A DNA stretch of 33,952 nt. Source: Candidatus Poribacteria bacterium (GTDB taxonomy: Bacteria > Poribacteria > WGA-4E > WGA-3G). Made by a program: the position numbers and the translations under genes. Below, piece by piece: positions 20,258 through 20,380 of this stretch. The notes beneath the pieces were generated by a model. It was given only the letters and a program-made list of their open reading frames with translations, was not told the DNA's origin and did not search any database. Position 1 is the stretch's first letter; each line of letters opens with the position of its first letter. The stretch lies in contig VYCT01000319.1 in the NCBI GenBank assembly GCA_009843785.1, positions 1-33,952 on the forward strand, written 5' to 3'.

Positions 20258-20380
20258 TCCCGCGTGTTGCGCGGCGGTTCCTGGCACAATAATGCAACCA
20301 ACGTGCGGGTCGCCAACCGCAACAACAATACGCCAACGAATACGAACAACAACAACGGTTTTCGTTGCGCGAAGACTCTT
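20258..20380 (+). repeat. DGR template repeat (TR), 3' of the RT gene
   Basis: AAC/AAT-rich near-copy of VR; in the VR frame it reads SRVLRGGSWHNNATNVRVANRNNNTPTNTNNNNGFRCAK. Confidence 0.96.

What the first reader, a model, noticed from the sequence alone, without database searches (positions are those of the whole stretch)
20258..20380. TR codon design: AAC/AAT-rich template targets specific residues of the FGE domain
In VR frame the TR reads SRVLRGGSWHNNATNVRVANRNNNTPTNTNNNNGFRCAK and the VR reads SRVLRGGSWPHSAPLVRVANRISNTPTTTSYYYGFRFAR. Twelve residues differ before GFR. AAC/AAT codons, which give broad residue choice without creating stop codons by A substitution, dominate the diversified sites. 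The framework RVLRGGSW and VRVANR is encoded with few or no adenines.
Basis: seen in the sequence. Interest (0 to 1): 0.75.

Follow-up and report, generated by a model that had tools for sequence, protein, structure and literature searches.

The report
Self-diversifying binding protein in a Poribacterium
This is a diversity-generating retroelement, a known kind of bacterial protein-randomising machine, in an uncultured Poribacteria genome; its template is spelled so that only the residues of a ligand-binding face are scrambled, and relatives carry up to about fifteen dispersed genes written from one template, while others keep frozen targets after losing the machine.

Summary
TR 20258-20380 and VR 18535-18657 pair in frame. 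All 14 mismatches before GFR fall on template adenines (14/31 A versus 0/65 non-A, p = 1e-8), and twelve residues differ, ten of them from AAC/AAT codons. The window holds a complete diversity-generating retroelement (DGR) in a Candidatus Poribacteria genome: cohesin-dockerin-FGE target, Avd, RT, TR with a conserved structured tail, IMH/IMH* asymmetry, and a hairpin after VR but not TR.

The codon-design reading holds and can be sharpened. Across 96 homologues, the 14 most variable of 490 residues are exactly the 14 TR codons written AAY, CAC or ACC. One correction: N468 in the supposed "VRVANR" framework is the most variable residue of all. The face sits where formylglycine-generating enzyme has its catalytic cysteines, absent here.

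Wider results: (a) a second, stale target lies elsewhere in this genome, beside a dead avd. (b) A related genome with one RT and TR has at least 13 dispersed targets. (c) RT-less relatives keep FGE genes with the template's third-base fingerprint. AAY design, FGE targets, remote targets and leftover targets are already described, so this is a well-documented new member of a known kind.

The parts
17191..18663 (+). DGR target gene (490 aa): signal-peptide-like N-terminus, cohesin (37-151), dockerin (166-214), FGE-type C-type lectin domain (243-487) with the VR at its C-terminus
   Evidence: Pfam PF00963 5e-11, PF00404 1e-8, PF03781 2e-62; same architecture in nearly all of the top 100 homologue clusters
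18535..18657 (+). Variable repeat (VR)
   Evidence: Ungapped pair with TR; 14/31 A mismatches versus 0/65 non-A before GFR
18634..18657 (+). IMH end of VR (CGTT.CGCGAGGGCTGTTG), differing from IMH* of TR at fixed positions
   Evidence: GAGGGCTGTT (VR) versus GAAGACTCTT (TR) recurs in G037, G048, G039 and in C276; similar in G003
18697..18717 (+). Hairpin CCCACCTGC-GTA-GCAGGTGGG about 50 nt downstream of the IMH
   Evidence: Found after VRs and not after TRs; core sequence occurs exactly twice in the 6.17 Mb genome, both times after a VR
18786..19133 (+). avd, accessory variability determinant (bAvd)
   Evidence: NF033474 2e-33 over cut-off; PF22296 1e-21
19130..20191 (+). DGR reverse transcriptase (353 aa), with IGNLTSQ and YMDD motifs
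   Evidence: RVT_1 1e-24; relatives in many phyla sit beside A-specific TR/VR pairs
20258..20380 (+). Template repeat (TR); AAY-rich in the target frame; 1.3e17 possible proteins before GFR and no stop
20381..20575 (+). Conserved, structured RNA tail after TR, ending in a terminator-like hairpin (about 20517-20559) and T run
   Evidence: Alignment of 7 genomes; fold z-score -3.3; 62 consensus pairs, 8 with double changes; no Rfam match
15393..16013 (+). Neighbouring secreted cohesin protein, possible docking partner
   Evidence: PF00963 6e-12; role inferred
16220..17029 (+). Neighbouring cohesin protein with FlgD-like/T9SS-type C-terminus, possible docking partner
   Evidence: PF00963 5e-10, PF13860 4e-10, TIGR04183; role inferred

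Best explanation
The segment is the template repeat of a complete, recently active diversity-generating retroelement. The TR is transcribed together with its structured tail; RT with Avd copies it into cDNA, misreading adenines; the cDNA replaces the VR at the end of the FGE-type lectin gene, with the IMH and the downstream hairpin marking the recipient. Because the diversified residues are written AAY (or ACN/CAC) and the structural residues carry no non-silent adenines, each round yields one of about 1e17 binding faces on an unchanged scaffold, with no stop codons before GFR. The scaffold has lost the catalytic cysteines of FGE, so the product is most likely a secreted binding protein, attached through its dockerin/cohesin parts. 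The same cassette type can write other copies in trans. Shown here: the A-only pattern, the parts, the fold, and the match of variable residues to AAY codons. Inferred from work on other DGRs: transcription, cDNA priming, retrohoming, ligand binding and cohesin docking.
For: A-only differences in the window and in three relatives against their own TR: 20/0, 15/0 and 15/0. Avd and RT identified. Hairpin only after VRs. IMH/IMH* asymmetry conserved. Top 14 variable residues equal the 14 TR sites. VR differences spare codon position 3 (2-12%, versus 43-55% upstream in the same genes). Fold: pLDDT 97.6, TvpA 2y3c E 9e-17 and profile E 9e-45.
Against: No expression data, no same-strain VR variants and no ligand. 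The genome is a MAG with a single VR state. JGI metagenomes gave no strain-level relatives. Solvent exposure of the variable residues was not computed. The private C485F change in a residue conserved in 92 of 94 homologues could mean that this allele is not fully functional.
Confidence: 0.93

Rival explanations
1. Decayed DGR: the cassette wrote this VR in the past but no longer works, and the VR is now inherited as a fixed gene.
For: Degenerate cassettes exist in relatives: RT truncated and TR altered in G039, avd pseudogene at C276, and no RT in G059, G002 and G034. C485F in this VR.
Against: RT and Avd are intact here, and VR versus its own TR shows zero non-A differences before GFR, although the TRs of relatives have drifted by 6-16 bases. 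A long-dead pair would have drifted apart.
Confidence: 0.06
2. Ordinary paralogue divergence: TR and VR are duplicated gene ends that diverged under positive selection at binding residues, without mutagenic reverse transcription.
For: FGE paralogues abound in this phylum and binding loops evolve fast.
Against: Mismatches fall only on A of one copy (p = 1e-8). Third codon positions hardly change in VR sites but change most upstream in the same genes. True non-DGR FGE paralogues keep nearly the same sequence across many genomes and use NNR codons.
Confidence: 0.01
3. The diversified FGE protein is still an enzyme (formylglycine-generating or a relative) and the variation tunes its substrate range.
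For: Strong FGE-family match (PF03781 2e-62, PDB FGE 6muj).
Against: The segment holding the two active-site cysteines of FGE is replaced by the VR loop, shortened and without cysteine (alignment). Catalytic residues inside a randomised face would be lost in most variants.
Confidence: 0.04

Closest known systems
Treponema denticola DGR with TvpA (PDB 2Y3C; PMC4891356)
   Same: FGE-type C-type lectin target, mostly asparagine codons diversified, several remote targets, and target genes left in isolates without RT and TR
   Different: Poribacteria; cohesin-dockerin architecture here; at least 13 dispersed targets for one cassette in relative G003, against up to 7 in T. denticola
Archaeal AvpA DGR (PMC5006420)
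   Same: 10 of 12 variable codons are AAY, giving broad chemistry and no stops; hairpin/cruciform after VR
   Different: AvpA has a divergent C-type lectin fold, not the FGE subtype; archaeal host
Bordetella phage BPP-1 DGR with Mtd
   Same: RT, Avd, TR/VR, IMH/IMH* and A-specific changes in a C-type lectin face (from established knowledge of this system)
   Different: Phage tail protein; here a chromosomal gene, with nearest viral RTs at about 40% identity
Thiohalocapsa PB-PSB1 DGRs (PMC10907252) and cyanobacterial DGRs (PMC7517822)
   Same: Diversified FGE/CLec modules joined to kinase or conflict-type domains, remote targets
   Different: In Thiohalocapsa nine loci serve 15 targets; in G003 a single cassette serves at least 13

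Membership tests
Diversity-generating retroelement | RT of the DGR type near the repeats | tested here: met
   RVT_1 1e-24; IGNLTSQ motif read in the sequence; 54-90% identical RTs lie beside A-specific TR/VR pairs
Diversity-generating retroelement | Template and variable repeat differing almost only at template adenines | tested here: met
   14/31 A versus 0/65 non-A before GFR
Diversity-generating retroelement | VR at the 3' end of a target gene with a C-type lectin (or Ig) fold | tested here: met
   PF03781; model and Foldseek
Diversity-generating retroelement | Avd accessory protein | tested here: met
   NF033474 114.8 bits, cut-off 80
Diversity-generating retroelement | IMH in VR, mismatched IMH* in TR | tested here: met
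   Fixed differences shared by all compared VRs versus TRs
Diversity-generating retroelement | Hairpin/cruciform downstream of VR only | tested here: met
Diversity-generating retroelement | RT-dependent replacement of VR by mutated cDNA | not testable with these tools
   Needs a retrohoming assay or population reads
Formylglycine-generating enzyme (catalytic) | Two active-site cysteines after GGS[WY] | tested here: not met
   No cysteine in the aligned segment
FGE-type C-type lectin fold | Structural match to FGE/TvpA | tested here: met
   6muj E 2e-26, 2y3c E 9e-17

The most novel reading that the evidence does not exclude
In this family of Poribacteria a single RT-TR cassette acts as a genome-wide master template. 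It writes the same binding face onto many dispersed proteins with different output modules (dockerin, kinase, lipoprotein; caspase-like in RT-less relatives), and the written repertoire is kept as fixed genes after the cassette is lost. Third-base-locked codons then mark such orphaned, DGR-written genes in genomes with no reverse transcriptase.
Probability: 0.45. Interest if true: 0.65.

Novelty: new member of a known kind. Interest (0 to 1): 0.42.

Why it matters
The finding links a template's codon spelling to where a protein family varies with unusual clarity: 14 codons predict the 14 most variable residues of 490. It also yields a simple test, third codon positions frozen while first and second vary, that recognises genes written by a DGR even where the machine is gone. 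In these Poribacteria that points to a dispersed repertoire of diversified recognition proteins driven by, or left over from, one cassette. A large metagenome survey of DGRs (PMC8144416) stated that it could not see remote targets.

Tried and rejected
Full-length structure prediction with close homologues gave a poor FGE model (pLDDT below 50 in much of it); replaced by an FGE-only model on a diverse alignment. A strict VR pattern in JGI metagenomes found nothing, and an RT search there found no relative above 63%, so strain-level VR variation could not be tested. Rfam gave nothing real for the TR tail. The idea that framework codons avoid adenine by synonymous choice was tested and is not significant alone (2 versus 5.0, p = 0.10). 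The idea that the C276 copy is an actively written trans target was weakened: it has 3 non-A differences from this TR and 2 from the G037 TR. The idea that all FGE paralogues of this genome are DGR-written was rejected: C71 copies carry NNR codons and 30% of differences at position 3. NNY counts conditioned on amino acid are a weak test by themselves; the codon-position contrast is the strong one. The promoter scan gave only near-chance hits.

Full report
Where it is. The window is contig C291 of a 6.17 Mb assembly. Its nearest RT relatives are in records titled Candidatus Poribacteria. Ordered on the + strand are two cohesin proteins, a target gene of 490 aa (cohesin, dockerin, FGE domain), avd, RT and TR.

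The observation. TR and VR pair without gaps. Before GFR, 14 of 31 template adenines are changed and 0 of 65 other bases (p = 1.1e-8). Twelve residues differ, ten of them from AAC/AAT. If every TR adenine before GFR may become any base, 1.3e17 proteins are possible and none carries a stop.

Does the codon spelling choose the residues? In 96 full-length homologues from the 5.8-billion-protein search, mean entropy is 3.49 bits at the 14 AAY/CAC/ACC positions. It is 0.88 in the rest of the FGE domain and 0.96 in the VR framework. The 14 most variable of 490 positions are exactly these 14. The three ACG threonines show mainly T, S, A and P, as the NCG codons allow, at 473, 475 and 477. AAY dominance is general for DGRs: 73% of mutated TR codons in 26 DGRs fetched here, and already noted in the literature (PMC5006420).

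Structure. An FGE-only model reaches pLDDT 97.6. Foldseek places it with FGE (2e-26) and with T. denticola TvpA (9e-17). The VR runs from strand beta3 (RVLR) to GFR. Its first variable block aligns with the FGE segment that bears the two catalytic cysteines, which are missing (that these are the catalytic cysteines is established knowledge of FGE). In solved DGR lectins this region is a solvent-exposed binding site (PMC6328139). Exposure in this protein was not measured.

DNA signals. A hairpin, CCCACCTGC-GTA-GCAGGTGGG, lies about 50 nt after the VR and not after the TR. It recurs after VRs of relatives, with a different sequence in G003. Its core occurs only twice in the whole genome, after the two VRs. 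The 3' ends of VR and TR differ in the same way in all genomes compared, as expected for IMH and IMH*. About 190 nt after the TR are conserved across seven genomes and fold better than shuffles (z = -3.3), ending in a terminator-like stem. This is presumably the tail of the template RNA.

Own template writes own target. Against its own TR each local VR has no non-A difference before GFR: 14/0 here, 20/0 in G037, 15/0 in G048, 15/0 in G003 (A changes/non-A changes). Against the TR of another genome there are mostly 4 to 15, with a single 1 between the near-identical templates of G048 and G045. The TR therefore drifts and the VR follows, which speaks for recent activity.

A second copy in this genome. 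C276:3189-3314 is a VR in a lipoprotein-FGE gene, with the hairpin and an avd pseudogene, but no RT or TR on its 5.65 kb contig. It has three non-A differences from the window TR and two from the G037 TR, so it was probably last written by an older template.

Relatives. Of 62 genomes of the family, five besides this one have a full-length RT of this type, and one has a truncated RT with an altered TR. G003 has one RT and TR. Of 20 FGE loci matching the framework there, 13 differ from that TR by at most 4 non-A bases in 80 with p < 1e-3, while two FGE genes that do not look DGR-written show 12 and 20 non-A differences. The modules ahead of the written FGE domain vary: dockerin and kinase in G003, caspase-like in RT-less G059 and G002, dockerin in G058.

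Targets without a writer. G059 (one contig), G002 and G034 have no RT of this type and no Avd over cut-off, yet their FGE genes keep the fingerprint. At the variable sites only 5-12% of differences fall on codon position 3, against 43-50% upstream in the same genes; C71 paralogues of this genome show 30%. Loss of the RT, or an RT missed by incomplete assembly, would both explain this; G059 and G002 are nearly complete. The same state is described in T. denticola (PMC4891356), so the phenomenon is known.

Verdict. Observation confirmed; interpretation supported with one correction (N468). This is a DGR of the FGE kind, a new member of a known kind. The most useful additions are the exact match of 14 codons to 14 variable residues, the third-base test for orphan targets, and the many-target genome G003.

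Noticed in passing
G000:C276:3189-3831 (L117): Second VR in the same genome, in a lipoprotein-FGE gene with the VR hairpin and an avd pseudogene (in-frame TAG), no RT or TR on the contig.
   Followed up: yes
L115, L164-L174 (G003): One RT-TR cassette with at least 13 dispersed FGE targets on one chromosome; N-terminal parts include dockerin and protein kinase domains.
   Followed up: partly
L187, L193, L203 (G059, G002): Genomes without RT carry FGE genes with template-like third bases, some fused to caspase-like domains.
   Followed up: partly
L116:10285-10408 (G039): The TR itself shows DGR-like changes (AAC to TAC, TTC, TCC, CTC) and the RT is truncated: a template apparently overwritten or converted by a VR-like copy.
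   Followed up: partly
L114:10472 (G031): TR whose 5' half lacks the usual adenines although the RT is intact; possible conversion of TR by VR sequence.
   Followed up: no
L296, L298, L311, L312, L317, L318, L320, L321, L323 (G085, G088): Another family of the order has many third-base-locked FGE genes but no RT of this type was found; perhaps a different or lost DGR lineage.
   Followed up: partly
18643-18645: C485F, a private non-A change in a cysteine kept in 92 of 94 homologues, close to the IMH.
   Followed up: no
20381-20575: Conserved structured non-coding tail after TR with compensatory changes; no Rfam family.
   Followed up: partly
21368-23029 and 24685-27078: Long FG-GAP/ASPIC-UnbV repeat proteins next to the DGR (Pfam run on the first only), with related stretches rich in NNGDGTF; not part of the DGR.
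   Followed up: no
5215-5325, 6313-6376, 11268-11380, 23033-23150, 24570-24690: Short dispersed intergenic repeats built on ACTGACAACTGA/AGTTATCAGT units in both orientations.
   Followed up: no
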